NCBI GenBank assembly: GCA_023053575.1
Contig: JAKZAP010000021.1
Location: 8,804,212 to 8,868,211 of the forward strand
From: Branchinecta lynchi
Lineage: Eukaryota; Arthropoda; Branchiopoda; Anostraca; Branchinectidae
Direction of reading: 5' to 3'
DNA length: 64,000 nt
How positions within the stretch are numbered: the first letter of the stretch is position 1; the number at the start of each line of letters is the position of its first letter. Made by a program: the position numbers and the translations under genes. This document shows, in pieces, positions 20,573 to 34,126 of this stretch. The notes below the pieces were generated by a model. The model had not been told where the DNA came from. It saw nothing but the letters and a program-made list of their open reading frames with translations, and did not search any database.

Positions 20573-20578
20573 CAAGAT
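20573..20578. repeat. Target site duplication of the Polinton, left
   Basis: CAAGAT immediately outside the left TIR. The same hexamer is at 34,121-34,126. Six-base duplications are the known signature of Polinton integration. Confidence 0.92.
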
Positions 20579-21161
20579 AGTAGTATATAATACCGGCTCC
20601 CACTCCACCCTCCCCCCAATTTCAAAACCCCAGTTTAACATCAATTTCTTAAATTTTAACATCCTTTTTACCAAATTATCCCCCTTTTTAAGAACATTTT
20701 TATTTTCTTACTTCCAAAATAAAGGATACAAGAAATGAGAATATTACCCTTTACTACATATAAAATACTACAATATACACTACTTCTTTTTTTTTTACAT
20801 TTTTCATTTTTTATTCAAATATTACTGAGTAAACAGTTCTAAATCCACATATGTGTCTTTGTTCTTGTTTTCCCGTACAATCGGTTGCAAAACTAGATTT
20901 TTCTTTAAAAGTAATTCGTTAGCAATGGCATTATATTTCTGAGTTATAAACAAATCACAGGGTTTGTCATTATGATTAATAACTACAACCAACTTATCAC
21001 CATATTTTGTCTTAGCAATTCTCATTTTAACAATAGTATATTTCAATCCTAGAACTAGTTCTTCTTTCCTGATTGTCTCATTGTATTTATTCATTCTGAT
21101 TGTATTCAAGACTTCCTTTGTGGACTCCATTTATTAGGGGATGATTTTATTAAATAAAAAT
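20579..21161. repeat. Polinton left terminal inverted repeat
   Basis: 583 bp starting AGTAGTATATAATACCGG. Its reverse complement matches 33,538-34,120. By eye there are five substitutions and two one-base indels, so identity is close to 99 percent. The TIR contains a complete gene (20,822-21,130) with its start motif and a downstream AATAAA. Confidence 0.95.
20822..21130 (-). CDS. TIR-encoded small protein, left copy (possible OB-fold, ssDNA-binding-like)
   Basis: 102 aa, highly charged and beta-rich by pattern. A YTIVKMRIAKTKYGDKLVVV stretch near residues 31-50 resembles the first strands of OB-fold single-stranded-DNA-binding-type domains. That is a pattern impression, not an established match. 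The start ATG lies in CCCCTAATAAATGG, the standard start motif of this element, and AATAAA follows the stop. The copy in the right TIR (33,569-33,877) differs by one residue, aspartate to glutamate near the C-terminus. The reading frame is kept in both TIRs, which argues for a real product. Being inside the TIR doubles gene dosage and would let gene conversion keep the copies alike. A protein coating displaced strands during protein-primed replication would suit this place. Confidence 0.75.
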   Translation of the reverse strand: MESTKEVLNTIRMNKYNETIRKEELVLGLKYTIVKMRIAKTKYGDKLVVVINHNDKPCDLFITQKYNAIANELLLKKNLVLQPIVRENKNKDTYVDLELFTQ

Positions 21162-21167
21162 ATAGAC

Positions 21168-22550
21168 TCACAAACTCACATACATATTTTTGTTAATAAT
21201 ATCTAATGTAGCTTTTCTTTCATAATATATAACACAGTAAACATTATATGGTACGGGTTGATTATCTTTCAACGTTAAACTTATTTCAATATCAGCAGTT
21301 GTTCCATTATAAATATTTGACTCGTGTTTGGAAACATCGAAACAGAATAGTGGATATACTTCTTTAAATTCTTCTATACTAACAACACTACCAGTATCAA
21401 ATGCTAATTGTTTATAACCCAAATGTACAAACCTATTGTAAAGATTTGAATATTTACATTTATCATCGCTAAAATCACATTTAAGTGGTTCTTCAGGATA
21501 TTTATCCCCATTAATTCTAAGTTCTATGTCTGTTAAATTCATATGATCAAACACCATATTATTCATTAATTGATTGTTATGCTTTTCATTTTTCTGTAGC
21601 ATCACAACTACTTTTGTTGGATTGTTTCTCTCAGATATAACTTTCCAAGTGTGTTCCTTATTCTGACTAACATCACTTTTATAACTATTACATGCTTCCC
21701 ACATCAGATTATGCTTTCTGTCCTTTGCCAATCCCTTTTCTAAGTTACTCATCATTTCAATACTAGGAGCTACAATAGGGATCTTCCAGGATAAATACTC
21801 GATGACTACTTTGAAATTAGTATTTCCATTTCTTATAATCATGTTGTTATCATCATTTCTTCTTAGAAATATTTTATGCGATGCACCTCTGAAGAATCGT
21901 TTGTTTCCTTTCAAAAATCCAAACAATTCTGATAATGGTAAATACATATTTACTAATTTACTGCTCTTTGTTCTGTTATATCTTTTTTCAAATCCTTTAT
22001 TATAATTATTATTATTTCTCAAACTGACTGTTCCACCCCCTGCTGCAGCCCCTGCAGCCCCTGCAGCCCCTGCTACTACTGGAGTTGCAGTAAACGAAGC
22101 AATAACAGGATTAATTTCTTTTCCTTGATTATAATCCTTATACCAGAAATGATTTCTTGCTGCACTTCTAGAATAATCATCAGAGTATTCAATCAACTTT
22201 GTAACGGTAGTTGTAATACCAACATGATTAATTTTTTCAACCGATTCATCGTTTATTACATATTCAGCGGTACTGAATAAATTAAATCCATTGTTCGTCA
22301 AAGTAGCAATATCGGTTGCAGCTATATTATCTCCATTTTCTTTCACTATTCTTACACTAACATCAAGATAACTTTCACTTGGATAAAACCAGGAATCTAA
22401 TTTCTTCGTTACGAATTCAAACTCTGATTTATTAGATACATTCACATCTGTTTCTCGAATTTCTTTAAATTCATATTTAACCACTGTTTCATCCACAAGC
22501 GGTTCATCAAAAATGTTCCATTGCGGACTGATAACTTTATTTACTGCCAT
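21168..22550 (-). CDS. Major capsid protein, double jelly-roll (hexon-like)
   Basis: 460 aa. It starts in TATATAAATGG. The overall pattern fits the Polinton/adintovirus double-jelly-roll capsid protein, which forms the pseudo-hexagonal capsomers. The middle contains a PLSELFGFLKGNKRFFRGAS-type stretch (about residues 207-226) and a following FLRR segment, which is conserved in this family as I know it. Residues about 158-171 are an Ala/Gly-rich loop, coded by an imperfect CTGCAGCCC repeat at 22,037-22,078. This probably lies in a surface loop, where length change is tolerated. It lies directly after the 118-aa gene and before the left TIR gene. The stop is followed by AATAAA. The frame is intact. 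Confidence 0.85.
   Translation of the reverse strand: MAVNKVISPQWNIFDEPLVDETVVKYEFKEIRETDVNVSNKSEFEFVTKKLDSWFYPSESYLDVSVRIVKENGDNIAATDIATLTNNGFNLFSTAEYVINDESVEKINHVGITTTVTKLIEYSDDYSRSAARNHFWYKDYNQGKEINPVIASFTATPVVAGAAGAAGAAAGGGTVSLRNNNNYNKGFEKRYNRTKSSKLVNMYLPLSELFGFLKGNKRFFRGASHKIFLRRNDDNNMIIRNGNTNFKVVIEYLSWKIPIVAPSIEMMSNLEKGLAKDRKHNLMWEACNSYKSDVSQNKEHTWKVISERNNPTKVVVMLQKNEKHNNQLMNNMVFDHMNLTDIELRINGDKYPEEPLKCDFSDDKCKYSNLYNRFVHLGYKQLAFDTGSVVSIEEFKEVYPLFCFDVSKHESNIYNGTTADIEISLTLKDNQPVPYNVYCVIYYERKATLDIINKNMYVSL
22037..22078. repeat. Short GC-rich tandem repeat inside the capsid gene
   Basis: About four imperfect CTGCAGCCC units in an otherwise AT-rich gene. On the coding strand they give an Ala/Gly run in a putative capsid surface loop. 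Confidence 0.75.
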
Positions 22551-22580
22551 TTATATAAGAAAGAAATTATTAAATAAAAC

Positions 22581-22937
22581 TTATTTCAGAATCTTTAATC
22601 CATTTCCAGTCATTAACGTTTTGATCAAGTCCTGACTTCTTTGATTTAAAATCCTTTTATTTGTACCGATAAGATCCTTCATCGATTTTTTGTTTCCAAT
22701 TACATCAATGAGTTCCTTCTTGTTTACATCGATCAGATCTTTCCCATATTCTATTGCTCTGTTTTTCAACAACTCAAATCTCGGTTTAATAATATTATTA
22801 TACATTGACATAGCCCCATCTTTTATTTGTTTTGCTGACGTTTGAAATAACTGGGAATTAACAATGTTTTTGAATACACTACCGATTCCACTTCCATACT
22901 GCTTTTTATAAAGTAATCGCTTATTATTAATCAACAT
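22581..22937 (-). CDS. Small basic virion protein candidate (118 aa)
   Basis: 118 aa, lysine-rich, with a glycine-rich YGSGIGSVF near residues 15-23, then a long predicted amphipathic helical region rich in NI, KD and IK. The start ATG lies in CTATAAATG. Position, size and composition resemble the small membrane-active or core minor capsid proteins (adenovirus pVI/pX-like) that sit beside capsid genes in adintovirus-like elements. I cannot assign it firmly. It is 30 bp upstream of the capsid gene. No adenain consensus cleavage site is obvious. Confidence 0.55.
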   Translation of the reverse strand: MLINNKRLLYKKQYGSGIGSVFKNIVNSQLFQTSAKQIKDGAMSMYNNIIKPRFELLKNRAIEYGKDLIDVNKKELIDVIGNKKSMKDLIGTNKRILNQRSQDLIKTLMTGNGLKILK

Positions 22938-22965
22938 TTATAGGTAAATAATTTTATTTCACTAA

Positions 22966-23691
22966 TCAATAACCTTTTCTTAAATGCAGCACGTATCCAA
23001 CGTTATCACCATTCAAATCGATAGGTCTTCCCAACTGATCAGTAATTGTCATTCTCAAGGAGTAAATAAAGTCTTTTGTGTTAATAGGAAGGTAGATTAA
23101 TTGTCTAGGATTCTCAACAATTTGACAACCCGGTTCTGTATTAGGAACAAATGTCCAAATGACATCTGATTTACTTTTGTTTACGATAGAACTGTTTACA
23201 AGAGAGCAGTGAATTTGTATTTTATCAACGCTTCTTGTTATATTCGGAAGCTTTGTACCTTCATTGATTTTCTTAGATATCTCACTATCCTTCTCAAATC
23301 CTAAAATCTGACACAAGTCACTATTAAATCTAAACACATATTTTTCTTGTAATAGTATGACAAATCTCATAGATGCTGGATTGGATGAAATTACAATAGG
23401 ACATTTATCTTTTGGGGTATCAAAATACTGACACAAAAAATAATTCAAACAATCATCGTTATACATCCCATTAGGAATAGTAACATTCATCCATTCTGTT
23501 GCATTATTATCTTCATCTTTCCTGTATTGAAATGTATTATTTCCAAATTTATCACTTATATTATGCCATGAATACCACAAAGTACACTGATTCAAACCTA
23601 TTTCATAATCCCAATTACGATTCAATTCGATTGGTTGACTAAATGTTATATCAATGATACTTTCATTACCTTCAATGTTTAACAACACCAT
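22966..23691 (-). CDS. Minor capsid protein, single jelly-roll (penton-like)
   Basis: 241 aa, beta-rich throughout. The N-terminus (about residues 15-45, with the pattern PIELNRNWDYEIGLNQCTLWYSWHN) and the C-terminal IYSLRMTITDQLGRPIDLNG (about residues 209-228) are typical of the Polinton/adintovirus penton-like protein that fills the fivefold vertices. The start ATG lies in TAATAAATGG, and the stop TAA of the upstream 276-aa gene forms the first bases of that motif. AATAAA follows the stop. The frame is intact. Confidence 0.8.
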   Translation of the reverse strand: MVLLNIEGNESIIDITFSQPIELNRNWDYEIGLNQCTLWYSWHNISDKFGNNTFQYRKDEDNNATEWMNVTIPNGMYNDDCLNYFLCQYFDTPKDKCPIVISSNPASMRFVILLQEKYVFRFNSDLCQILGFEKDSEISKKINEGTKLPNITRSVDKIQIHCSLVNSSIVNKSKSDVIWTFVPNTEPGCQIVENPRQLIYLPINTKDFIYSLRMTITDQLGRPIDLNGDNVGYVLHLRKGY

Positions 23692-23694
23692 TTA

Positions 23695-24525
23695 TTAGAA
23701 ATATTTTTTATATATTGAATTGTAATTTCTCTTCGTAAGAAATTTATTTCGCATTAACGAATCCAAAATATCAATAGCTTCATTTCTCACCTCATCAGAT
23801 GTATTTCCGTTTACTCTGCTACCTATCAAAGTGTATAGTTTTGAAATCATTTCATCACAATTCATAAATACTCCAGTTCCTTGTTGGTTGACTAATGGGA
23901 AATAGGTTTGAATGGTTTTTAACCTATTCTTGTATTCTTTTATAAATTCAATGTGTTTATCATACTTACTAGAACTATAACTTTTACTTTTCATACCACC
24001 ATAACTTTGACTTATAGATGTTAAATAATTCAGAGCCCCATCTATTTCGTTATGATGCTTAAGGTAATAATGAGGCATTTTAAAATAATTATCGGTACCA
24101 TTCCAGTCATCTTTATATTTTAAATTAATTTGATTTAATAATTCCACATCAATATTTAAGTTTAGATTTACGTCATATGGTTGTTCTAGATTGGGTTCTA
24201 TCGCATGAGTGGGAGCTCGACTCGATTCCTCTGAAGTAGTGGTCTGTAAAGCTGTTTTAAATGTATCACCTAATCTGATAAACCGTCTTCTTGAATTATT
24301 ATCACCTTCAAGTAGTTTATTAATTATCGTTTCAGCGTTCTCTTGTAATTTTTTGATGGTGTCTTTAGTGTTTTCTTTTTGTGCTATAATAACTGGAGCG
24401 TTTAACTCTGAAGCATATTCCCGAAATCCTGCCTTCTCCATCTCATTTTGTTGAACCTTTCTTCTCTGAACTTCTCTGTTCTTCACTATATCCGATAACA
24501 TATCACTCAAGCGTCTTGAATCCAT
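23695..24525 (-). CDS. Polinton conserved protein of unknown role (276 aa)
   Basis: The N-terminal half is charged and likely coiled coil (about residues 5-85, many K/E/R/Q). The C-terminal 45 residues contain GSRVNGNTSDEVRNEAIDIL and end in aromatic/basic residues. In other Polintons I recall a protein with a similar C-terminal GS-x-AGN-x(4)-E pattern of undefined function. It may be a virion component given its place between integrase and penton genes, but no function is shown. The start ATG lies in TATATAAATGG, 16 bp after the integrase stop. The stop codon overlaps the start motif of the penton gene. Confidence 0.6.
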   Translation of the reverse strand: MDSRRLSDMLSDIVKNREVQRRKVQQNEMEKAGFREYASELNAPVIIAQKENTKDTIKKLQENAETIINKLLEGDNNSRRRFIRLGDTFKTALQTTTSEESSRAPTHAIEPNLEQPYDVNLNLNIDVELLNQINLKYKDDWNGTDNYFKMPHYYLKHHNEIDGALNYLTSISQSYGGMKSKSYSSSKYDKHIEFIKEYKNRLKTIQTYFPLVNQQGTGVFMNCDEMISKLYTLIGSRVNGNTSDEVRNEAIDILDSLMRNKFLTKRNYNSIYKKYF

Positions 24526-24541
24526 TTATATACAAGTAATT

Positions 24542-25474
24542 TTATTTCATAATAAATTTTGAAAGTTCTTTTTCATAAAACCCTCCTTGAATTAATTCCC
24601 CACTTTTGTCAGATATTTCATAAGTAATGGGAATGGTAGGTCTGATGGTTGCTATCTGAAATACCTCATCCGTATAATTAGGTAAATATCCTTTATCGAA
24701 AATACTTTTTTCTTTTTTAATTCTGACTAAATCCCCTACTTTGACGTTTCCTGTGATTTTGTAGTCATCTACTGGAGGACACAGAGCACTAAAAACCTTT
24801 TTCTGATTAACCTTTTTACTAGCATCAACTGGTTTCATTTGTATTGAACGGTGGTACGAGTTATTATAATTACTCACAAATAAAGGTAAAATATCAATCC
24901 AATTAGTAGTGTTATTGTGAGTGAAATATTTCCATAACTTTTCTTTTAGCGTTCTGTTGAATCGTTCTACAATTTGCGCTTTCAATTCGCTTTCAGATGC
25001 AAACCAGTGTATGCCGTTATTTTTCAAAAAAGTTTGAACATTTCTCATCACAAATTCTTTACCTTTATCAGTTTGTAGTTTCTTAGGAATTCTTTCTTTA
25101 AATATAACACTGAATGCTTTTATTATTTCAGCACCCGTTTTGTCTTTCAGAGGGATACACCAAGCATATTTACTAAAGCAATCAATAACAGTTAAAATGT
25201 AATTTGTTTTATTATTTTCTTTTTTATATTTTTGCATGTCAACTAAATCAGCTTGCCATTGCTCATCAACATAGTGAACATACACTCGCCTCCTTTCAAA
25301 GTTATGATAGGAAGGTTTGTGTAACGTATACACATTCTCATTTTGCAACACATTTTTTATTTTATCCTTGGAAACCTTAACACCATTTTCTTTTAATTTT
25401 CTGTAAATATCATCCACACCTGAATAATTAGAATAATACGTCTTTAAAATATCTGTTTCTGCGTTGAGGTTTTT
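24542..25474 (-). CDS. Retrovirus-like integrase (rve), probably expressed by -1 frameshift from the zinc-ribbon gene
   Basis: The catalytic core has WQAD (aspartate 1), TDKGKEF (aspartate 2, 60 residues on) and the VERFNRTLK glutamate 34 residues further, so the DDE triad is intact. An SH3-like C-terminal domain follows, with VGDLVRIKK. Upstream of the core is a HTH-like IYRKLKENGVKVSKDKIKN and the TLHKP motif usual in Polinton integrases. This frame has no ATG before the catalytic core and no TAAATG motif. It opens within the zinc-ribbon gene, in its -1 frame, at the heptamer T TTA AAA (25,480-25,474). The start given here is the first codon after the proposed slip; the open frame itself reaches 25,513. 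Alternatives are a one-base indel in the T5A8 run or a non-ATG start. The enzyme inserts the element DNA and makes the 6-bp duplication. Confidence 0.88.
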   Translation of the reverse strand, partial: KNLNAETDILKTYYSNYSGVDDIYRKLKENGVKVSKDKIKNVLQNENVYTLHKPSYHNFERRRVYVHYVDEQWQADLVDMQKYKKENNKTNYILTVIDCFSKYAWCIPLKDKTGAEIIKAFSVIFKERIPKKLQTDKGKEFVMRNVQTFLKNNGIHWFASESELKAQIVERFNRTLKEKLWKYFTHNNTTNWIDILPLFVSNYNNSYHRSIQMKPVDASKKVNQKKVFSALCPPVDDYKITGNVKVGDLVRIKKEKSIFDKGYLPNYTDEVFQIATIRPTIPITYEISDKSGELIQGGFYEKELSKFIMK

Positions 25475-25611
25475 TTTAAAAAGCGATTTTTCCTCGATCC
25501 GCAAATAACACAATTCCCTTTCAGCATTGGAACATTATTTTTTTGTGACACTGCCTTAAACATTGATTCAGTGTCAGTGCTCTTTTTACATTTCATACAA
25601 TAAATCTCCAT
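25444..25611 (-). CDS. Small zinc-ribbon protein, proposed N-terminal part of the integrase
   Basis: 55 aa, too short for most gene finders. It has CMKC near residues 5-8 and CVIC near residues 34-37, a four-cysteine zinc ribbon of the kind found in many large-DNA-virus and Polinton proteins (DUF5679-like, by my recollection). The start ATG lies in TTCTAATAAATGG, the element's regular start motif. The ribbon ends just before a TTTTTAAAAAAAA run, after which the frame stops at 25,446-25,444, while the -1 frame continues into integrase. A metal-binding N-terminal module fused to integrase would parallel the HHCC domain of retroviral integrases. Confidence 0.75.
   Translation of the reverse strand: MEIYCMKCKKSTDTESMFKAVSQKNNVPMLKGNCVICGSRKNRFLKKTSTQKQIF
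25474..25480 (-). promoter_or_regulatory. Candidate -1 ribosomal frameshift site, zinc ribbon to integrase
   Basis: The zero-frame codons are TTT TTA AAA AAA, giving the canonical X XXY YYZ heptamer T TTA AAA. A second slippery run, A AAA AAA, overlaps it. A -1 slip enters the integrase frame exactly. No strong downstream stem-loop was seen by eye. Confidence 0.6.
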
Positions 25612-25642
25612 TTATTAGAAAACAATTTTCTTAAACGAAAAG

Positions 25643-26032
25643 CTACCAACTCTTCATTTTCCGCTGGATGTAGGAAATGCAGTGAAAACCACAGTTTAAT
25701 TCATCTATATTTTGAACAGCAAGATTTTCATAAGCTATTTTTTTCTTTGAAGTTCTTAGATATTTAATTATTTCTTTTCCCGGGGGAATACCGAAAGAAT
25801 CAAAAAATTCTACATGGGGGTATTCAGGTAGATTACAATAGGCAACCCAGTGAGTTCCAGGCATTCCGAGTTTGTCATAGTTGATTACACCACATTCCGA
25901 ATCGTTTATATGTTTGGGTAGCGTATCTAAAGAGAAAACACCTCGAAACTGTGGTATACTCCCTAATGCATCCATAATATCAAAATTGGTTAGAGGTCCT
26001 ACTTTACTTTTGCTTCTTTTTTGATGTCCCCG
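25643..26032 (-). CDS. Adenain-like cysteine protease, probably expressed by -1 frameshift from PX
   Basis: The catalytic set of the adenovirus-type protease is visible: His in GTHWVAY, Asp in EFFDSFG, Gln in the LAVQN segment and Cys in NCGFHC. It would mature capsid and core proteins. The first ATG is at 25,975, but conserved family sequence (GPLTNFDI, then RGVF) begins about ten codons before that ATG in the same frame. No (T)AAATG motif precedes it. The frame opens inside the PX gene, in its -1 frame, and the two overlap at the heptamer A AAA AAC (26,038-26,032). I therefore give the frame from the slip site. The short product from 25,975 (110 aa) would lack part of the N-terminal helix. 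The zinc-ribbon gene follows after 31 bp. Confidence 0.85.
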   Translation of the reverse strand, partial: RGHQKRSKSKVGPLTNFDIMDALGSIPQFRGVFSLDTLPKHINDSECGVINYDKLGMPGTHWVAYCNLPEYPHVEFFDSFGIPPGKEIIKYLRTSKKKIAYENLAVQNIDELNCGFHCISYIQRKMKSW

Positions 26033-26649
26033 TTTTTTGACTTCCTAGGTCTTCCACGTACCCCATGACCGACAACTCTTTGTGTTCCAGGAAGTGTTAG
26101 CGCTCCACCTGTGTTGACATCATCGGTTTTTTCCTTCTTAGGTCTACCACGTACACCATTACCGGTAACTTTTTGTGTTCCAGGAAGTTTAAGCGCTCCA
26201 CCTGTGTTGACATCATCAGTTTCCTTCTCACGTACCCCATTACCCACAACTTTTTGTGTTCCAGGAAGTTTAAGCGCTCCACCTGTGTTGGTCATTTTAT
26301 CCATAATTTTCTTACCAGCGAATGTACCCAAAGCAGCAGCACCACTTGTTAAAGCTGCCTTACCAAGGGTAATTGCTAGCGGTATTAAAAATGGAAGTAA
26401 TCCACCCTTTTGAATCGCTTCTTTCATCTGTTTGTATGATACATCAATATCACAGCCCTTATTATTCATTTTACATGTTTCAATTTTATCAATTTGTCGT
26501 TTACTTAAAAGTAACTTAACTGGTTCTCGTTCATTTTGTCTACTATGACTAACACGTATCTGACATTTTTGTTTAGCACCAAAGCATTTCTTCAGCTTTC
26601 CTTTCTGAAGCTTTGACAAATAAACTGTATACTCCATTGTTTCAACCAT
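25999..26649 (-). CDS. PX-like basic core protein with hydrophobic segment and AT-hook repeats
   Basis: 216 aa. A basic N-terminal region (residues 1-75) is followed by a hydrophobic Gly/Ala/Leu segment at about 82-112 (GGLLPFLIPLAITLG), as in adintovirus PX and adenovirus pX/pVI-type proteins. The C-terminal 95 residues are three tandem copies of a unit of about 28-32 residues beginning NTGGALKLPGTQ. Copies two and three end with RGRPKK and RGRPRK, which match the AT-hook core that binds the minor groove of AT-rich DNA. The start ATG lies in CCCTAATAAATGG. The product likely condenses the genome and may act on membranes. Its 3' end overlaps the protease frame. Confidence 0.75.
   Translation of the reverse strand: MVETMEYTVYLSKLQKGKLKKCFGAKQKCQIRVSHSRQNEREPVKLLLSKRQIDKIETCKMNNKGCDIDVSYKQMKEAIQKGGLLPFLIPLAITLGKAALTSGAAALGTFAGKKIMDKMTNTGGALKLPGTQKVVGNGVREKETDDVNTGGALKLPGTQKVTGNGVRGRPKKEKTDDVNTGGALTLPGTQRVVGHGVRGRPRKSKNGDIKKEAKVK
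26032..26038 (-). promoter_or_regulatory. Candidate -1 ribosomal frameshift site, PX to protease
   Basis: The zero-frame codons TCA AAA AAC GGG contain the canonical slippery heptamer A AAA AAC, directly followed by GGGG. A -1 slip leads without a stop into the protease, while the zero frame ends 11 codons later at 25,999-26,001. The same heptamer is used at retroviral gag-pro junctions. Confidence 0.65.
26100..26290. repeat. In-frame tandem repeats in the PX gene
   Basis: The block GTGTTCCAGGAAGT-TAAGCGCTCCACCTG (plus strand, a run of about 29 bases) occurs three times, about 70-95 bp apart. The units encode the AT-hook-bearing repeats of PX. Confidence 0.8.
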
Positions 26650-26679
26650 TTATTAGGGAATTAATTTATCTTATAAAAT

Positions 26680-27295
26680 TTATTTACCAGCCATCATTTT
26701 TTCTATTCTGGTAACGAATGGTTTGTCAACAGGTTTTAGCTCTAGCTCTAGAAGCCTTTTTAAAATATTTACTACTGCTCTTTCAATATTATCGATACGA
26801 GTTTTTTGACCAGCAATCTTTCCTTCAATTATACCGTTATGGGTGTGTTGCCCCAGAAGCTTTTTGTCATAATCTAAAAGATTCATAGTTAACGTTGCTA
26901 AATTAACAGCATCATTTTTGTTTCTAGGGTTTTGAACATTTGTTATCAACTTGTTTTCAGCGTTAATCTCTTTATCATTAACTCGAACTATTTCTTTTAC
27001 AAATAACCCTTTATCTTTAATCCTTACCAACGAATTATCAGGAGAATCATCTATCGCAGTTAATCTGTTGATATCTTCGCTAAAGTATTGGTTGGCTTGC
27101 ACTTGTCCTGCAGTCATTTGTTCTTTAAATTGATTCATAATCACAGTCATAGATCTTAAGCTAATAGCATCCTTGTCTGCCTTGGCATCACCTAAATTTT
27201 GTAATTCGTCTATCATGTAGGTTAATGTTACCATTTTCGTCAGTAACTTTCGATTCGTTACTTACCTTTTTTCCAACACTACCAAATTTATTCAT
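26680..27295 (-). pseudogene. Fibre-like Polinton protein with one frame change near its N-terminus
   Basis: The start with the element's regular motif (CTATAATAAATG) is at 27,295 and opens a 35-codon frame ending TGA at 27,190-27,188. The main frame (184 codons from an ATG at 27,234, down to 26,680) is offset by +1. The short frame ends in a GNINLHDRRIT motif. The main frame carries a matching second motif, KLITNVQNPRNKNDAVNL (about residues 95-112), and just after the break a run with the same DA-x-x-L ending. This internal duplication suggests the two frames once formed one protein. The C-terminal part has a likely trimeric coiled coil (residues about 140-184). Similar RIT-N-DA-N repeats occur in tail-fibre-type proteins. 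The break may be a one-base indel or a +1 shift at TTT AGG TGA. Confidence 0.55.
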
Positions 27296-27311
27296 TTATT
27301 ATAGAAATAAA

Positions 27312-27989
27312 TTATCCGGTAAATTTTTCAAAGTTTTTCCTGTACTTAAGGGTTTTATCTTTTATTTTTAAATCTATGAAGAAAAAACCGTAGCCCTTGG
27401 TTGCAGTCTCGAATTGTTTGAGAAATTTTTCATTGTCTATACTGGATACATGGCTTTGTCTTATTAATTTTACTTCTTTTGGATTAGAACACTGAAAGAA
27501 TGCAAAATAATTGCACTGGAGCCTTACCACCTTTGGTGTTTTATGATAGCTTTGAGACAAGTAAATAATTGAGGCATTTTTCTTTCTTCCTCTTATGAAT
27601 AAATCTTCTATTTTCTTCTGGTCTTTTTCAGTGACAAAATCGTCAAAGATAATCAAGTTTTGGTATTCAGGGTCTAAGTCGTCAACATCGACAATATCAT
27701 CAAGATTGTTACTTACTGTTAAGACTTTCGATTTGCATTGTGACTCCAAAGTGGTTAAATTGGTTATAAGGTCTTGATATTTATCTTCTTCAAGATCTTT
27801 AGCATACAAGTATATTCGGTTGAAACAAAGATATTCATAAATTAAATTCAAAAGAAGGTTTGTTTTCCCTGTTCCAGAACTACCACAAATTAAGAGTCTG
27901 AATGGCCACTGAGGTGCAAGGTCGTGCTTATTCTGATAAGTGTTTTTTTCACTAAAGTCATAGACTTTGATTGGAGCCTTTTCATTCAT
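27312..27989 (-). CDS. DNA packaging ATPase, FtsK/HerA (A32-like)
   Basis: 225 aa. Walker A GSSGTGKT at residues 36-43. Walker B NLIIFDDF at about 111-118. A following IYLSQSYHKTP segment places a glutamine where A32-type ATPases have their sensor. These belong to the HerA/FtsK superfamily that pumps viral DNA into capsids, and the protein has the normal Polinton size. The start ATG lies in CCTAAATAAATGA. It lies between the 21-bp repeat array upstream and the fibre-like gene downstream. The frame is intact. Confidence 0.9.
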   Translation of the reverse strand: MNEKAPIKVYDFSEKNTYQNKHDLAPQWPFRLLICGSSGTGKTNLLLNLIYEYLCFNRIYLYAKDLEEDKYQDLITNLTTLESQCKSKVLTVSNNLDDIVDVDDLDPEYQNLIIFDDFVTEKDQKKIEDLFIRGRKKNASIIYLSQSYHKTPKVVRLQCNYFAFFQCSNPKEVKLIRQSHVSSIDNEKFLKQFETATKGYGFFFIDLKIKDKTLKYRKNFEKFTG

Positions 27990-28020
27990 TTATTTAGGAA
28001 GAATTTTTCATTATAAGATT

Positions 28021-28198
28021 TACTTGAGTATTTTAAGTATATACTTGAAGTTTTGAAGTAGGTACTTGAATTTTTTAAGTAGGTACTTGAAGTTTTGAAG
28101 TAGGTACTTGAATTTTTTAAGTAGGTACTTGAATTTTTTGAAGTAGGTACTTGAATTTTTTAAGTAGGTACTTGAATTTTTGAAGTAGGTACTTGAAT
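28021..28198. repeat. Nine 21-bp tandem repeats between the ATPase and polymerase genes
   Basis: The phrase TACTTGA recurs at 28,021, 28,042, 28,063, 28,084, 28,105, 28,126, 28,148, 28,169 and 28,190, so the period is 21 bp with one step of 22. Most units read AAGTAGGTACTTGAA followed by a T run. AAGTA and TACTT form an imperfect palindrome in each unit. The array runs right up to the polymerase stop codon, and AT-rich DNA separates it from the ATPase start. Confidence 0.9.
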
Positions 28199-31100
28199 TT
28201 AATGTTTATAACCTAAAGGTAAAGTGTGTATTTTATCGCTTGTTACTATCCTTTTATCATCCTTAGGATCTAACGCTTTTTTATTCTGTTCTTCTAGAAA
28301 CATATTGTGCTTGTATGATCTTAAGTTAAACTGTGTTATAGAAAGGTTTTCCGTTTTACCAAACAGTACATCCTTATAGTTTTGAATGGTAATTTTATCT
28401 TTAACTATATTGGTTTTTATTCCTTTCAGTTTTTTGCTAGCTTTTGAAGGGTCTTGGTTGTCCTTTAAATAAGCATATACCTTTGATCGTAATCCAACAA
28501 ACTCTGTCATAACCTGTCCACCTAATTCATCTTTCATCATTCCTATCACTTTCTTATTGACATTAGGGAATCCGTATGGATTATCTTTCGCATAATCAGA
28601 TGTATCGAACCTCTCATTCAAATCCTGTTTGATATCTTGATAAAAATCTTCAGTTCTAATATCATATATGAAAGAATCAGTGTCCATATAACACAAATCA
28701 ATTTTATCTCCATATTTAGGCTTTATATAATCATAATGGAATTCATACATCAATAACTTGGATAGTTCCAATACAGCAAAGCCGATATACATTGGTTTGT
28801 CTAATTTTATCTTTTCCTTTGACATTCTTGCTACTGAAAAGTTTTCACTGAATATTATTTCAGATTTAAAGTTGGGTTTCTTTATTATTTTTTCTCTTGT
28901 TGCATCATCCGTTATTATTTCCATATCCGCTCGCTTCCTTACGTTTTCCATAGTTTTTCCAAAGCAAGCATTATTCATAAGCTTAAAGAAATCCTTTTCA
29001 AAATCATTTGTACCTTTAGTTCTAAGTGCTGTGTTGTGGTCTATATATCCTTTTAAGTAAGCACTTTCAGTGAATCCTAGTATTCTGTGTACTCTTTTCA
29101 ATATCAAACCTTTTTGTAAATAGAATTCTAGATTCCTGTGGTGAACTACATAGTTGGTTTTATCTAATACTGTGGTACATAGCTTACCGTTAAAGTGTTC
29201 CGGTGCTAATGGTAAATCCTTGTGTAATTCGTGTAGTTCTTTTGGATATTCTAAATCTACCTCATATATAACACCTACATCTTGTCTCACCGACTTAATC
29301 GTAATCACCGACTTGATATGAGTTTTTAGATGGTTGTAATACTCGATTGATTCGTATTCATTCCTTTCTTTCAAATCATCCGGTATGGAAATGAATTGGA
29401 AATCATTCGCTGGTAAATTCTGCGACATCGCCCACCCATATAAATTATTAGCGTCCAAATACATTAAATAATTAGATGGTTTATTCTCATTATAATCACT
29501 TGTATATTTATTATTTGCTTTTGCGTATCTTTTTATACATTGGGATACACCACCTCTTATTCCCTTTTCAATGAATGTATACATGTCTTCCTTCGAGAAT
29601 AGCGGCAAGTCTACTTTCGAATGCTTTAGGAAAGCATCCCATGTTAGTCCTGGAGCTGAGTAGTAATGAAGTGGATCCAGATCATAATTATGTATACACA
29701 CATTTCTGAAGTTCTCTACAACATCCGACAATATTAAAACATCACTTTTTAGGTATAATTTAGTATAATCAAGTAATGTTTCACAGTTAAATTGCTTCCA
29801 TATAGATACCGCTCTTTTATAATCACTTTTGTCAATACCTTTCCCCGTCAACCTAGAATAAAAGCTTTCTATTGGTGGTAACTTTGTACATTTCATTTTA
29901 TCGAAACTGTCTACGAATTCATAGGGATATACCCCTTTTTTAATTATTTCTTTGAATTCATCGTCATTTTTGAAGCTGTTAGATGTGAATTTGAAATTCT
30001 GTCTTAGATGATTACAAGGTACTTTGCAATCACATTTCGCTAAATTTGCTGATAGTTTGTCTAAAGATGAAGCCATAAATCTAATTGAATCTATAAACCG
30101 CATCTCATATTTTATTTCCGTATCCGCTTTTGTAATAATTATTGATTTTGAGAATGAGATGAAACTTTCTGCACTTTCAAAAATTCCGTTATCAGGTATC
30201 AATTCTCTAACAAATAAATGAGAATCATATTTTGATAAATTATGCATTACTACCGGGATATGCCTAGGAATCCTGTATTTCATATTACATTCAGCATGAG
30301 CAAATCCCCTATCTTCTCCTGTCATGTGGTCGTGATCAAAGTGAGGATTTTCAGTAATTTCAGTTGTACAGATGTGACAAGTCTTATTCATTAGATTTTT
30401 CCATTTTTCGGTAATTTCTGCATTGGTATAAGTATGGTTTCTTTGTCTGCTTTCATATTTGTTTGCAATTTCTGTGGATACTTTTGTAACGGTTTTAACA
30501 AAATGTTCTGCAGCGTCTTCACCGAAATAGTCATAGTATTTGTTCTGGTTTGTATCAAAGGAACAGCATACCTGAAATCCGTAAGCAAATGGTTTCTGTT
30601 TGGCCACTTTTATTGTTTTCTTTCCGTTTACCTGATTGTATTCTTCGTTATAAGACTCAAAGTCTGCTATTATGCAATAAGGTACTTTCATTTGTTTTGC
30701 AATATTTTTATATTGTACACTTGAACCTTCAGGAGGCATTATAATATCAGGATCTTCGCAATTATTTTTACTTTCATGTTTTTCATATTGTTCTTCTTTT
30801 GTAAAATGCCTTCCGCAAAAAGTGCATAGGTATGTCTTTGTTTTATTTTTAGAGATTTGACTACCAACTAATCTGCTCAGATCCTTTACCAGTACATAAT
30901 GATTATCGAAATATAATAAATTAATAACATGTTTAGCTGTTTTGCCATTGATTGTACTTTTTAGTATATGACTTCTGATAATTTTCTCTTTTTCAATTTG
31001 AAATAAACAAATCTTAATGTTGTATCTATTTTCAAATTTGTGTATATCTTTAGTATCCATTGGGAAGTTGGTAACCCCTTCGAAATCAAATTCGTTCTCA

Positions 31101-32275
31101 TATTGTTTATATTTCGAAATTCTTTCCGGATGATCCTTAGCTGGATGTAGATTTGCTAAGATAGACCAAAGGAAACATTTCTGGTCGTTATTTTCAATAT
31201 TCAAGCAAGCTCTTTTATTTTTTACGAAATCTGGCAGTATTTTAAACGTTCCTCCCATGTAAGATTCTATTCGTGTCATCCTATAATCAATTCCTTCATA
31301 CCGACTGAATTGTAGCCCAGATCGAGGGGTATTACTTAAAGAACTAAGTCTCTTGTTATTATCATCCAAATGATTATGAGTAAGAATGCTATTTTTATTT
31401 AAAATCCAAGAAGTACTGTTGTAATATACTACTACTTCTTCATCATTTTCCTGTCTATAGAATATAACCCTGGTTACAAACTGAACTCTATATTGATAAA
31501 GTTCATTCATCCGCCGCTGTAAATCGGCGAAAGTAAAAGCAATAAGAGTATGTTCATCTCTTCCATTGCTTTCAACTGATACGTTTACAGTGAATATATT
31601 TTCACTTTCGCTAAAAATAGTAGGCTGCTGTTCTTCTTCCGTTCTAAATAAATGATCAGGAATTAATTTTTCTTCTTTGATTTTTTTCTTATTTATGAAG
31701 AGAGTTGATAAACCAATTGGTTTCTGTCTACTGTTATCACGTCTTTCTGTTTGATCTTTTATGATATCTCTATTTTTCTGTACGGAATCTTTATGTTCGG
31801 TAATAATATTATTATAGTATTCTTCAACTCTTTTTAGTACTTCTTCTCGGTTTCCGCGAGTTGATAGGTTCTTGTTTTTCAGAAATTTCTTTAATTCACT
31901 TGTCTCTTTTTCTTTGTTATCATTGTATTCTTGTTTTAGTTTTGTAATGGTGATATTATTTTCTTTTATCTCATCTTCCAGAATGGTTCGTAATCTCGGT
32001 TCTGGTTTGTAGTCGGATGGTCTGTTCTTATTATGAGTTCTTTCGTTTCTGCGTTCAATTTTAATTTTATCTTCAGCTATCAAAATATACTTGTTAAGAT
32101 GGTTTATTATATTATTTGTTATTTCATGTTTCTTAGCTCCATTTGTTTTGATTTTATTAATTTTCGCATAAGTCCGCAGTTCATTATATGTGTATAGCGA
32201 TAATCTTTGTATAACCGCTTTGTTGTTTGATATAACCTTTTTACAAAGCTGAATAACCTCTGCAGTATTCATCAT
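28199..32275 (-). CDS. polB: Protein-primed DNA polymerase family B, with SAP, OTU-like and EndoVII-like regions
   Basis: 1,358 aa, the replicase. The N-terminus has two SAP-like DNA-binding motifs (residues about 25-60 and 127-155; the second contains LSTRGNREEVLKR). KCFLWS at 366-371 and NHYVLVKD at 458-465 give a Cys/His arrangement like the OTU-type protease domain reported in Polinton polymerases. CTFC at 484-487 starts a zinc-finger-like patch. The exonuclease has DFES at 538-541, HNLSKYDSHL at 678-687 and YLKSDV at 841-846. An EndoVII-like CHIC...FDHDH...CN lies at 633-664. Polymerase motif A is LDANNLYGWAM (940-950), motif B is NNACFGKT (1,101-1,108) and motif C is YMDTDS (1,196-1,201). 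All catalytic aspartates are present. The start ATG lies in CTATTAAATG. The gene appears functional. Confidence 0.93.
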   Translation of the reverse strand: MMNTAEVIQLCKKVISNNKAVIQRLSLYTYNELRTYAKINKIKTNGAKKHEITNNIINHLNKYILIAEDKIKIERRNERTHNKNRPSDYKPEPRLRTILEDEIKENNITITKLKQEYNDNKEKETSELKKFLKNKNLSTRGNREEVLKRVEEYYNNIITEHKDSVQKNRDIIKDQTERRDNSRQKPIGLSTLFINKKKIKEEKLIPDHLFRTEEEQQPTIFSESENIFTVNVSVESNGRDEHTLIAFTFADLQRRMNELYQYRVQFVTRVIFYRQENDEEVVVYYNSTSWILNKNSILTHNHLDDNNKRLSSLSNTPRSGLQFSRYEGIDYRMTRIESYMGGTFKILPDFVKNKRACLNIENNDQKCFLWSILANLHPAKDHPERISKYKQYENEFDFEGVTNFPMDTKDIHKFENRYNIKICLFQIEKEKIIRSHILKSTINGKTAKHVINLLYFDNHYVLVKDLSRLVGSQISKNKTKTYLCTFCGRHFTKEEQYEKHESKNNCEDPDIIMPPEGSSVQYKNIAKQMKVPYCIIADFESYNEEYNQVNGKKTIKVAKQKPFAYGFQVCCSFDTNQNKYYDYFGEDAAEHFVKTVTKVSTEIANKYESRQRNHTYTNAEITEKWKNLMNKTCHICTTEITENPHFDHDHMTGEDRGFAHAECNMKYRIPRHIPVVMHNLSKYDSHLFVRELIPDNGIFESAESFISFSKSIIITKADTEIKYEMRFIDSIRFMASSLDKLSANLAKCDCKVPCNHLRQNFKFTSNSFKNDDEFKEIIKKGVYPYEFVDSFDKMKCTKLPPIESFYSRLTGKGIDKSDYKRAVSIWKQFNCETLLDYTKLYLKSDVLILSDVVENFRNVCIHNYDLDPLHYYSAPGLTWDAFLKHSKVDLPLFSKEDMYTFIEKGIRGGVSQCIKRYAKANNKYTSDYNENKPSNYLMYLDANNLYGWAMSQNLPANDFQFISIPDDLKERNEYESIEYYNHLKTHIKSVITIKSVRQDVGVIYEVDLEYPKELHELHKDLPLAPEHFNGKLCTTVLDKTNYVVHHRNLEFYLQKGLILKRVHRILGFTESAYLKGYIDHNTALRTKGTNDFEKDFFKLMNNACFGKTMENVRKRADMEIITDDATREKIIKKPNFKSEIIFSENFSVARMSKEKIKLDKPMYIGFAVLELSKLLMYEFHYDYIKPKYGDKIDLCYMDTDSFIYDIRTEDFYQDIKQDLNERFDTSDYAKDNPYGFPNVNKKVIGMMKDELGGQVMTEFVGLRSKVYAYLKDNQDPSKASKKLKGIKTNIVKDKITIQNYKDVLFGKTENLSITQFNLRSYKHNMFLEEQNKKALDPKDDKRIVTSDKIHTLPLGYKH

Positions 32276-32320
32276 TTAATAGGGGAACATTTTTATTAAT
32301 AAATTTCTCCCGTCTGAGTT

Positions 32321-32339
32321 TTCTCAGCCGTAAAGAAAA
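32321..32339. other. Small hairpin upstream of the polymerase gene
   Basis: CTGAG TTTT CTCAG forms a perfect 5-bp stem with a 4-base loop, about 40 bp upstream of the polymerase start. Confidence 0.4.
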
Positions 32340-32402
32340 GCACTGGTTTTCCAAATCCTTTACTATGTATTTTCCGACGCCCTTATGGGTTTCGCACATG
32401 CT

Positions 32403-32545
32403 TTACTACTAGTCACGGGTTTCCTTTATTCTTTACTACTCTTGACGAAATCGGCATTTGGTTACTACTCTTAACGAAAATCCGCTTTTGGTTACTACTC
32501 TTGACGAAATCGGCATTTGGTTACTACTCTTAATTTTGTTAGAAA
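32403..32545. repeat. About 29-bp tandem repeats between divergent genes
   Basis: TTACTACT recurs at 32,403, 32,433, 32,462, 32,492 and 32,521. The central units read TTACTACTCTTGACGAAATC followed by GGCATTTGG. The array lies between the divergently oriented polymerase (minus) and 139-aa membrane protein (plus) genes, so it could hold a shared upstream control region. Confidence 0.8.
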
Positions 32546-32576
32546 TATTTTTCGAAACAATTTTATTATATTATAA

Positions 32577-32996
32577 ATGGAAGAATTAGAAAAGAAAATG
32601 TATGTTTACCGTCGCAGTTACAAGTACTACAATCGTATAAGTAATAGCTTACTTGTATCCAAATTCCTCTTTTCAGCAGCAGGAATGTCTGCGTTTCTAG
32701 TGCTACCGCTAGCTTCTTTAAGTTTGGGTGCTGTTATCATCGAAATAATTGAAAAGCAATTAAGAATTGCTGATAGAAAAGCAGAATTTAGGACAAATTA
32801 CAATTTTTATACTGAGTTGTTCTCAATGCTAAAATGCGGACAATTAACAATTGAGGAGGTAATTCAGAGAGAAACAGAGATGCGTAAAACCTTTCGATTT
32901 TTTCCTCGCGAAAAATACATGAAACAAGTCCGTCTGAATGGCTATAAATATTGTAATAAATCTATAAAAAGTCAAGAGAAATTACCAAACATATAG
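32577..32996 (+). CDS. Small membrane protein of the Polinton (139 aa, unknown)
   Basis: 139 aa. Hydrophobic residues about 23-58 would form one long or two short membrane segments (SLLVSKFLFSAAGMSAFLVL and ASLSLGAVIIEII). The flanks are basic and a charged C-terminal half follows. The ATG lies in ATATTATAAATGG, the same start motif as the minus-strand genes, which supports it as a real gene. It is the only gene outside the TIR on the plus strand. The function is not recognised; membrane interaction during entry or exit is only a guess. Confidence 0.65.
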   Translation: MEELEKKMYVYRRSYKYYNRISNSLLVSKFLFSAAGMSAFLVLPLASLSLGAVIIEIIEKQLRIADRKAEFRTNYNFYTELFSMLKCGQLTIEEVIQRETEMRKTFRFFPREKYMKQVRLNGYKYCNKSIKSQEKLPNI

Positions 32997-32999
32997 TCT

Positions 33000-33164
33000 A
33001 TTGCTATACTGAATATTGTTTCCTAACTGTCAAACAGATCTTTATTTCATACGCGCATTAATGAGCTGCGTCATTCAAAGGTCTCGCCGTCAATTTGGGA
33101 TGTAATTACAGTCTCCGGCGTGACTAACACAATCTCATCTTAACTCGGAAACTTGTGCGAATTG
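33000..33164. other. Polinton spacer downstream of the membrane-protein gene
   Basis: No gene seen. It contains ATCTTTATTTCATA downstream of the stop codon. Confidence 0.4.
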
Positions 33165-33420
33165 AACAAGGACCCTTGGTGTAGTGGCTCAACGCTCGGC
33201 CGAACGTTGACTCATCACCATTCAGACCTTCGAATCCCACTGACCGCAGTTTCTGTTTGTCGATAGTGGGATGGTAATAAAAACTTGCGGGTTCCCCGTT
33301 CAGGGCCCCCCAGACTAAGGCCACATCACCACAAACACTACACCAATCGGGGTGTACCAACATCACACCTCTTAATTTTCAAAGTCTGGGGGTGTGGGGT
33401 TTTGCAAAAATATTTTATAA
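33165..33420 (+). mobile_element. tRNA-derived SINE-like insert
   Basis: TTGGTGTAGTGGCTCAACG fits a pol III A box, and about 50 bp on CCTTCGAATCCCA fits a B box. The T arm does not pair as in a true tRNA. The downstream body has CCCCCCAGACT and its inverse AAGTCTGGGGGT. GC content is higher than in the surrounding Polinton DNA. This looks like a SINE head and body inserted between the membrane-protein gene and the right TIR. No second copy is seen in this window. Confidence 0.45.
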
Positions 33421-33537
33421 AGTTCAAAATCGGTAATCATCATATCATCATGCAAACTCAGTACTGCGTTTTTATCTATCGCGTTTATGTGATAAACGTG
33501 GTTGGTTTCTATTACCAGATGTTTCAAAGCGATTGGG

Positions 33538-34120
33538 ATTTTTATTTAATAAAATCATCCCCTAATAAATGGAGTCCACAAAGGAAGTCTTGAATACAAT
33601 CAGAATGAATAAATACAATGAGACAATCAGGAAAGAAGAACTAGTTCTAGGATTGAAATATACTATTGTTAAAATGAGAATTGCTAAGACAAAATATGGT
33701 GATAAGTTGGTTGTAGTTATTAATCATAATGACAAACCCTGTGATTTGTTTATAACTCAGAAATATAATGCCATTGCTAACGAATTACTTTTAAAGAAAA
33801 ATCTAGTTTTGCAACCGATTGTACGCGAAAACAAGAACAAAGAAACATATGTGGATTTAGAACTGTTTACTCAGTAATATTTGAATAAAAAATTAAAAAT
33901 GTAAAAAAAAAGAAGTAGTAGTATATTATAGTATTTTATATGTAGTAAAGGGTAATATTCTCATTTCTTGTATCCTTTATTTTGGAAGTAAGAAAATAAA
34001 AATGTTCTTAAAAAGGGGGATAATTTGGTAAAAAGGATGTTAAAATTTAAGAAATTGATGTTAAAATGGGGTTTTGAAATTGGGGGGAGGGTGGAGTGGG
34101 AGCCGGTATTATATACTACT
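33538..34120. repeat. Polinton right terminal inverted repeat
   Basis: 583 bp, ending CCGGTATTATATACTACT. It is the inverse of 20,579-21,161. Homology stops abruptly at 33,538 on the inner side. Confidence 0.95.
33569..33877 (+). CDS. TIR-encoded small protein, right copy
   Basis: 102 aa, identical to the left copy except for one Asp/Glu change. It has the same start motif (CCCCTAATAAATGG) and AATAAA after the stop. It reads outward, toward the end of the element, like the left copy. Of the substitutions between the TIRs, only two fall in the gene: one silent and one conservative. That hints at constraint. Confidence 0.75.
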   Translation: MESTKEVLNTIRMNKYNETIRKEELVLGLKYTIVKMRIAKTKYGDKLVVVINHNDKPCDLFITQKYNAIANELLLKKNLVLQPIVRENKNKETYVDLELFTQ

Positions 34121-34126
34121 CAAGAT
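34121..34126. repeat. Target site duplication of the Polinton, right
   Basis: CAAGAT directly after the right TIR, matching 20,573-20,578. Confidence 0.92.

What the first reader, a model, noticed from the sequence alone, without database searches (positions are those of the whole stretch)
25444..25513. Integrase appears to be joined to a zinc ribbon by a second -1 frameshift
Seen: a 55-codon zinc-ribbon gene with a standard start motif runs into T TTA AAA (25,480-25,474). The -1 frame from there is integrase, which has no ATG before its catalytic core. The zinc ribbon ends just before the heptamer. This is the second gene lacking its own (T)AAATG start, and the slip has the same direction and type as at PX-protease. 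Two independent decay events both giving -1 at ideal heptamers would be a coincidence. Inferred: a low-dose zinc-ribbon-integrase fusion, analogous to Pol expression in retroviruses.
Basis: partly seen in the sequence, partly recalled or inferred. Interest (0 to 1): 0.88.

Follow-up and report, generated by a model that had tools for sequence, protein, structure and literature searches.

The report
Conserved zinc-ribbon/integrase frame split in Polinton
A virus-like jumping gene present in hundreds of copies in one large eukaryotic genome keeps its integrase out of frame behind a small zinc-ribbon gene, and evolution has guarded both reading frames, so the integrase is probably made as a rare fusion through a slip at a run of A's.

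Summary
The window holds a complete Maverick/Polinton (TIRs, 6-bp target-site duplication). A DUF5679 zinc-ribbon ORF (25611-25444, -) runs through an in-phase T TTA AAA (25480-25474); the -1 frame is an rve integrase with no ATG before its catalytic core. It is not one-copy decay: of 100 junctions listed in map order (309 forward and 309 reverse reported), 96 carry the same -1 phase, 2 an uninterrupted frame, 2 another phase. The phase is shared by copies up to dS about 0.3 apart, while integrase dN/dS is about 0.14, also in the 80 codons before its first ATG. Constraint changes frame at the junction. Best reading: low-level -1 recoding (ribosomal at the heptamer, or transcriptional slippage on the A run) makes a zinc-ribbon-integrase fusion, as OrfA/OrfAB in IS3-type insertion sequences. 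Not shown: the fusion itself. No convincing stimulatory RNA structure was found, heptamer conservation is uninformative, a non-AUG start after the heptamer and systematic run-length miscalls are not fully excluded, and no relative outside this genome was found. The parallel PX-protease slip is weaker: the protease has a conserved ATG and the PX frame stays constrained to its stop.

The parts
20573..20578 (.). 6-bp target-site duplication, left copy (CAAGAT)
20579..21161 (.). left terminal inverted repeat (begins AGTAGT)
   Evidence: main arms 99% complementary, a 33-nt link between them 79%
24542..25477 (-). rve-type integrase reading frame downstream of the slip site; first in-frame ATG only at 25237, inside the core
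   Evidence: (rve 55.4 bits)
25474..25480 (-). in-phase slippery heptamer T TTA AAA, inside a T5A8 run (25482-25470)
   Evidence: present in phase in 68 of 75 split copies
25444..25611 (-). DUF5679 zinc-ribbon ORF, 55 codons, TAAATG start; its last ten codons overlap the integrase frame
25643..25975 (-). adenovirus-like protease frame from its own ATG; in the -1 frame relative to PX
   Evidence: (Peptidase_C5 below cut-off, E 0.16)
26032..26038 (-). second in-phase heptamer A AAA AAC in the PX gene, ahead of the protease frame
25999..26649 (-).
   Evidence: (AT_hook just below cut-off)
27312..27989 (-). A32-like packaging ATPase
   Evidence: Pox_A32 51.3 bits
28199..32275 (-). PolB-like ORF with SAP and endonuclease VII-like domains
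   Evidence: YMDTDS motif read by eye, no Pfam PolB match
21168..22550 (-). double jelly-roll major capsid protein
   Evidence: 97.8 bits
33538..34120 (.). right terminal inverted repeat (ends ACTACT)
34121..34126 (.). 6-bp target-site duplication, right copy (CAAGAT)

Best explanation
The Polinton family in this genome expresses its integrase by -1 recoding. Most ribosomes translate the zinc ribbon alone and stop ten codons past the slip site. A minority of translation events, either by ribosomes slipping back one base at T TTA AAA or on mRNAs altered by polymerase slippage on the adjoining A run, continue in the integrase frame and yield a zinc-ribbon-integrase fusion of about 356 residues. 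Shown: the -1 phase is the common state across the sampled subfamilies of a recently multiplying family; the integrase frame is under purifying selection, upstream of its first ATG too; constraint passes from one frame to the other at the junction. Inferred: that the fusion is made, by which of the two slips, and that low dose and DNA targeting by the zinc ribbon are the benefit.
For: Phase: 96 of 100 listed junctions, in four local haplotypes (A8CC or A9C followed by TCA or TCG); 75 of 88 analysed rows, a set enriched on purpose for odd and divergent ones. In the integrase tree the 8 rows of the other main phase need at least 6 changes. Integrase dN/dS among 47 split copies with an intact integrase is 0.142 as ratio of means (294 pairs at dS 0.2-0.5), 0.12-0.14 in the bins from dS 0.02, 0.25 below 0.02. 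The 80 codons before the first ATG give 0.136 against 0.169 for the rest (444 pairs). That ATG is absent in 12 of 57 intact copies, 8 of them split. Frame switch: upstream, zinc-ribbon frame pN/pS 0.156 against integrase frame 0.977; the 20 codons after the heptamer, integrase frame 0.229 against continued zinc-ribbon frame 0.735; integrase codons 4-80, 0.145 against 0.836. The integrase lacks the TAAATG found at 8 of 9 minus-strand gene starts examined, protease and integrase not counted. Five copies with identical integrase DNA on four contigs are all split (L002, L003, L005, L006, L008; fetched as best matches).
Against: No marked RNA structure downstream: z -1.86 (9 of 200 shuffles as good) and 0.78 for two stretches. 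Parsimony per site is confounded by recombinant haplotypes, and the heptamer is not clearly protected: 7 changes in its seven positions, 4 of them at one position. 7 of 75 split copies have lost it; one of these, L074, keeps an intact integrase. Near-cognate codons after the heptamer (codons 10, 13 and later ones) are conserved, so a non-AUG start is not excluded. One intact split copy, L053, has an ATG at codon 43. The junction A8 is the only run of 8 or more in the element's ORFs, so a systematic run-length miscall cannot be checked elsewhere in them. No relative outside this genome was found (viral and prokaryote collections only), so the state cannot be polarised beyond the family. Haplotype numbers behind the frame test are small (9-22) and pairs are not independent. 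No RNA or protein data.
Confidence: 0.57

Rival explanations
1. The integrase is an independent protein started at a non-AUG codon (ATT/ATA at codon 10, ACG at codon 13, or a later one), from the zinc-ribbon mRNA or one of its own; the zinc ribbon is a separate protein and the heptamer is incidental.
For: Near-cognates at codons 10 and 13 are present in 47 and 46 of 47 intact split copies, and six further ones up to codon 51 in 46-47; the heptamer could be chance (p about 0.14 for this overlap); no convincing structure; L074 lost the heptamer yet keeps an intact integrase.
Against: Integrase codons 4-12 already look constrained (pN 0.055, pS 0.342, only 5 haplotypes); TTG codons upstream of the heptamer are disfavoured because the integrase frame is unconstrained there (0.977); the start motif of most other genes is absent; natural 356-codon frames show that the fusion is readable.
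Confidence: 0.2
2. Split copies are defective; integrase is supplied in trans by the few uninterrupted copies or by another element.
For: Uninterrupted copies exist (2 of 100 listed; L017-L020, L054, L055) and are scattered over the tree.
Against: Integrase dN/dS about 0.14 across split lineages; identical young copies are split; uninterrupted copies are no commoner than the other off-phase class (2 and 2 of 100), as expected of run-length noise. Copy-to-copy recombination could blur this.
Confidence: 0.12
3. Artefact: the assembly systematically miscalls the length of the A run, so that copies look split although the DNA is not; or this copy alone is in error or decayed.
For: The run is a homopolymer and the only one of 8 or more in the element's ORFs. 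PMC10120064 (passages) notes that collapsed short-read assemblies of near-identical viral insertions gain false frameshifts.
Against: Hundreds of separately placed copies. The phase is the same whether the run is 8 or 9 A and in L053, whose run is broken so that none exceeds 6 and whose integrase is intact, as well as in L079 (longest 6) and L074 (longest 7). Runs of 10-31 A or T occur in the window.
Confidence: 0.06
4. Splicing or another RNA-level rearrangement joins the two frames.
For: None found; not tested.
Against: Both sides of the junction are constrained up to it, leaving no evident unconstrained intron.
Confidence: 0.05

Closest known systems
IS3-family insertion sequences (OrfA/OrfB to OrfAB), e.g. 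ISSau2 (PMC5771124, passages read) and IS1447 (PMC6211511, passages read)
   Same: A small 5' ORF is fused to a DDE catalytic ORF by recoding in an A-rich overlap; usually -1 ribosomal, in IS1447 transcriptional slippage on a run of nine A.
   Different: Bacterial; OrfA of ISSau2 is a helix-turn-helix protein, here the first domain is a DUF5679 zinc ribbon; here the element is a virus-like eukaryotic Polinton and recoding is not demonstrated.
Retroviral gag-pro-pol -1 frameshifting (recalled)
   Same: -1 slip at X XXY YYZ, integrase made as a minor fusion; the integrase core here matches PFV integrase chains.
   Different: No RNA genome, no gag or pol; no convincing structured stimulator was found here.
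Maverick/Polinton and adintovirus elements (PMC8097293, PMC11071308, PMC11071296; passages read)
   Same: TIRs, rve integrase, packaging ATPase and jelly-roll capsid gene.
   Different: The passages seen treat integrase as a gene of its own; the only -1 ribosomal frameshift suggested in them is hypothetical, in some adintovirus Penton genes (PMC11071296).

Membership tests
Maverick/Polinton | terminal inverted repeats and 6-bp target-site duplication | tested here: met
   (that 6 bp is typical is recalled)
Maverick/Polinton | retroviral-type rve integrase | tested here: met
   55.4 bits
Maverick/Polinton | A32-like packaging ATPase and jelly-roll capsid protein | tested here: met
[quoted passage not shown]
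   1358-aa ORF with a YMDTDS motif read by eye; Pfam scan gave SAP and Endonuclease_7 but no PolB family
Maverick/Polinton | adenovirus-like cysteine protease | tested here: inconclusive
   Peptidase_C5 E 0.16, below cut-off
Programmed -1 ribosomal frameshift site | overlapping -1 frames with an in-phase X XXY YYZ heptamer | tested here: met
Programmed -1 ribosomal frameshift site | frame relation conserved while the downstream product is under selection | tested here: met
   within one genome only
Programmed -1 ribosomal frameshift site | slip site conserved beyond its surroundings | tested here: inconclusive
   68 of 75 intact, but parsimony confounded by recombination
Programmed -1 ribosomal frameshift site | downstream stimulatory RNA structure | tested here: inconclusive
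   z -1.86 and 0.78: nothing convincing; pseudoknots not assessed; not all known sites need one (recalled)
Programmed -1 ribosomal frameshift site | fusion product detected | not testable with these tools
   no RNA or protein data
IS3-type OrfA/OrfAB system | bacterial IS with a helix-turn-helix OrfA | tested here: not met
   576-Mb genome, zinc ribbon instead of HTH; analogy of working only

The most novel reading that the evidence does not exclude
A eukaryotic virus-like DNA transposon has convergently adopted the dose control of bacterial IS3 elements and retroviruses: its zinc ribbon is made as a free protein (perhaps a regulator) and only rare -1 recoding attaches it to the integrase. Uninterrupted variants that arise by run-length mutation leave few descendants because too much integrase is harmful. 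A second -1 site may do the same for the protease.
Probability: 0.38. Interest if true: 0.78.

Novelty: new variant of a known kind. Interest (0 to 1): 0.62.

Why it matters
Recoding that doses an integrase is known from retroviruses and bacterial insertion sequences. A conserved case in Polintons, a lineage that some authors place at the root of many eukaryotic dsDNA viruses, would show the same control evolving around a related rve catalytic core in a third setting. It would also mean that Polintons whose integrase looks like a broken or start-less ORF can be intact. The family's hundreds of near-identical copies make this testable with ordinary RNA and peptide data from the host.

Tried and rejected
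Relatives outside the genome: close search of viral contigs and genome contigs found none. Degenerate motif scans of viral contigs found nothing, one hit that by its ORFs looks like a phage and gave no integrase match below E 2, and four loci with only distant matches (26-30% identity); the one read in detail, L106, looks by eye like an insertion-sequence transposase. The protein database was switched off. No collection of animal genomes was on hand. Other Polinton families in the genome: the PF04665 and PF21738 searches score only 150 of 798 and 126 of 871 candidates; of the 40 loci taken near matches, 35 gave integrase hits and five none (L082, L085, L088, L089, L095). Heptamer conservation by parsimony: uninformative. 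Downstream RNA folding: no convincing structure. PX-protease recoding: not supported by the frame test. A first PX-protease frame test used a wrong offset and returned no rows; corrected. My note called one protease C-terminus intact; one search showed that both alleles simply end differently. PHROGs gave only transposase-type matches for the integrase and nothing firm for the other five proteins sent; the zinc ribbon had no PDB match. The direct DNA search of the junction did not complete. Structure prediction was not run. Papers: no hit for polinton with zinc ribbon, polinton with programmed ribosomal frameshift or DUF5679; 19 papers hold polinton, integrase and frameshift, of which I read passages on that word in six (decay, miscalls or search settings, besides the Penton suggestion), found it absent from the main text of a seventh and read an eighth only for ribosomal frameshifting, which it uses of another virus; eleven were not opened.

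Full report
What is there. The window carries a complete Maverick/Polinton between terminal inverted repeats 20579-21161 and 33538-34120 (main arms 99% complementary), flanked by the 6-bp duplication CAAGAT. On the minus strand lie a PolB-like ORF, an A32-like ATPase, a PX-like ORF, a protease, the zinc ribbon, the integrase and capsid genes. The zinc ribbon 25611-25444 is Pfam DUF5679 (42.6 bits) and the integrase is rve (55.4 bits), whose core also matches PFV integrase chains (best E 3.5e-11). T TTA AAA is in the zinc-ribbon phase at 25480-25474, and the integrase continues in the -1 frame. Its first in-frame ATG lies inside the core. Eight of nine minus-strand genes examined (protease and integrase not counted) start at TAAATG, a word that occurs 12 times among 288 ATG on that strand of the interior. 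The protease and the integrase do not start so.

Not a single decayed copy. The window lies in a 576-Mb genome of unnamed origin. A pattern with exact flanks is reported 309 times forward and 309 times reverse, its reversed control 0 and 0. The tool lists the first 100 in map order: 96 with the window's phase, 2 with the uninterrupted phase, 2 in another phase. Two score-ranked lists agree: of 131 scored integrase matches 124 have the frame lengths of the split state, 4 are uninterrupted, 3 other; of 150 scored zinc-ribbon matches 136 have a 55-aa frame, 7 one of 356, 1 of 350, and 6 one of 44, 45 or 64 aa. Among 88 rows analysed in detail (87 places; L031 and L069 are one; 20 were chosen mainly for odd frames, and 40 mainly for divergence or a differing ATPase frame, of which 5 dropped out without integrase hits), 75 are split, 8 have the phase of an uninterrupted frame and 5 other phases. 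Of those 8, six are truly open (L017-L020, L054, L055) and two carry a stop (L056, L097).

Not a run-length miscall, as far as can be seen. The junction A8 is the only run of 8 or more in the element's ORFs, so a systematic miscall cannot be checked elsewhere in them. But the phase is the same with 8 and with 9 A, and in L053, whose run is broken so that none exceeds 6 and whose integrase is intact; also in L079 and L074 with longest runs of 6 and 7.

The split is inherited. On a tree of integrase DNA the 8 rows of the other main phase need at least 6 changes (two long-branch rows, L066 and L086, are misplaced there, and many inner branches are weak). The split phase occurs with several different local sequences, so it predates their divergence, unless recombination carried it; recombination between copies is visible. 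Uninterrupted and other off-phase copies are equally rare in the map-order list (2 and 2), as expected of run-length mutation after insertion.

Both frames are guarded. Among 47 split copies with an intact integrase, mean dN is 0.0348 and mean dS 0.2440 in 294 pairs with dS 0.2-0.5, ratio 0.142; the largest dS is 0.313 in a pair with L074, which has lost the heptamer, and 0.288 in the highest listed pair without it. The 80 codons before the first ATG give pN/pS 0.136, the rest 0.169 (444 pairs); that ATG is missing in 12 of 57 intact copies. The zinc ribbon (44 codons, 75 copies) gives 0.39 to 0.09 from the lowest dS bin to that of 0.2-0.5. Upstream of the heptamer the zinc-ribbon frame has pN/pS 0.156 and the integrase frame 0.977; in the 20 codons after it the integrase frame has 0.229 and the continued zinc-ribbon frame 0.735; over integrase codons 4-80 the values are 0.145 and 0.836. 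So translation is in one frame before the junction and in the other after it. The tests use 9-22 haplotypes, and pairs are not independent.

Mechanism. A ribosome slipping one base back on T TTA AAA would continue in the integrase frame; slippage of the polymerase on the A run could have the same result. By codon arithmetic the slip product would have the junction residues seen in the natural 356-codon frames. Against a strong ribosomal signal: no convincing structure (z -1.86 and 0.78), and 7 of 75 split copies have lost the heptamer, five of them by TTA turned into TAA; L074, one of the seven, still has an intact integrase. Parsimony does not show the heptamer as protected. Starts at TTG upstream of the heptamer are disfavoured by the frame test; ATT/ATA at codon 10, ACG at codon 13 and six later near-cognates are conserved and remain a rival, though codons 4-12 already look constrained (5 haplotypes).

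The second junction. PX to protease is also in the -1 phase in 83 of the 86 copies that could be scored, 10 further rows being unscorable, and AAAAAAC is present in 85 of those 86 stretches, at the window's place and followed by GGGG in 84 of 89. But between that heptamer and the PX stop it is the PX frame that is constrained (0.15 against 2.60), the protease frame only after the stop (0.27 against 0.76), and the protease ATG is kept in 82 of 84. No stretch after it folds better than shuffles (z 0.33 and 0.62). The protease may simply start at its ATG.

Comparison. The layout, a small first ORF and a DDE catalytic ORF joined by recoding in an A-rich overlap, matches the OrfA/OrfAB system of IS3 insertion sequences, which use -1 ribosomal slippage (PMC5771124, passages) or, in IS1447, transcriptional slippage on nine A (PMC6211511, passages). 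For Polintons and adintoviruses I found only a hypothetical -1 site in some Penton genes (PMC11071296, passages). Searches for polinton with programmed ribosomal frameshift or with zinc ribbon returned nothing, in a library that lacks most subscription papers and did not hold the adintovirus (PMC8502044) and nematode-polinton (PMC10748475) papers.

Verdict. The split is real, common to the sampled subfamilies and compatible with function; -1 recoding into a fusion is the best explanation at about 0.57.

Noticed in passing
window 21162-33537, minus strand: TAAATG, in several genes as TCTAATAAATGG or CCTAATAAATGG, sits at most gene starts of the element (8 of 9 minus-strand genes examined, and the 102-aa ORF of the terminal repeats); it may be a promoter/start motif.
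   Followed up: partly
window 25643-25720 and the same place in other copies: The protease C-terminus exists in two main alleles that differ in distance to the zinc ribbon (window type in 28 of 84 rows, the other in 48), mixed over the integrase tree.
   Followed up: partly
window 26016-26282: The PX gene holds 81/93-nt repeats with an AT-hook-like GVRGRPRK unit, and the PX-to-protease distance varies among copies.
   Followed up: no
window 28009-28221: 21-nt tandem array between the PolB-like ORF and the ATPase, overlapping the end of the former.
   Followed up: no
window 28199-32275: The PolB-like ORF carries SAP domains and an endonuclease VII-like domain and has no Pfam PolB match.
   Followed up: no
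zinc-ribbon region of the fetched copies: Zinc-ribbon haplotypes are mosaic relative to the integrase tree (sites with 7-12 parsimony changes), suggesting recombination or conversion among copies.
   Followed up: partly
G000, whole genome: Very large young Polinton family: 309 forward and 309 reverse exact-flank junctions in 576 Mb and at least 131 integrase copies at 99-100% aa identity.
   Followed up: partly
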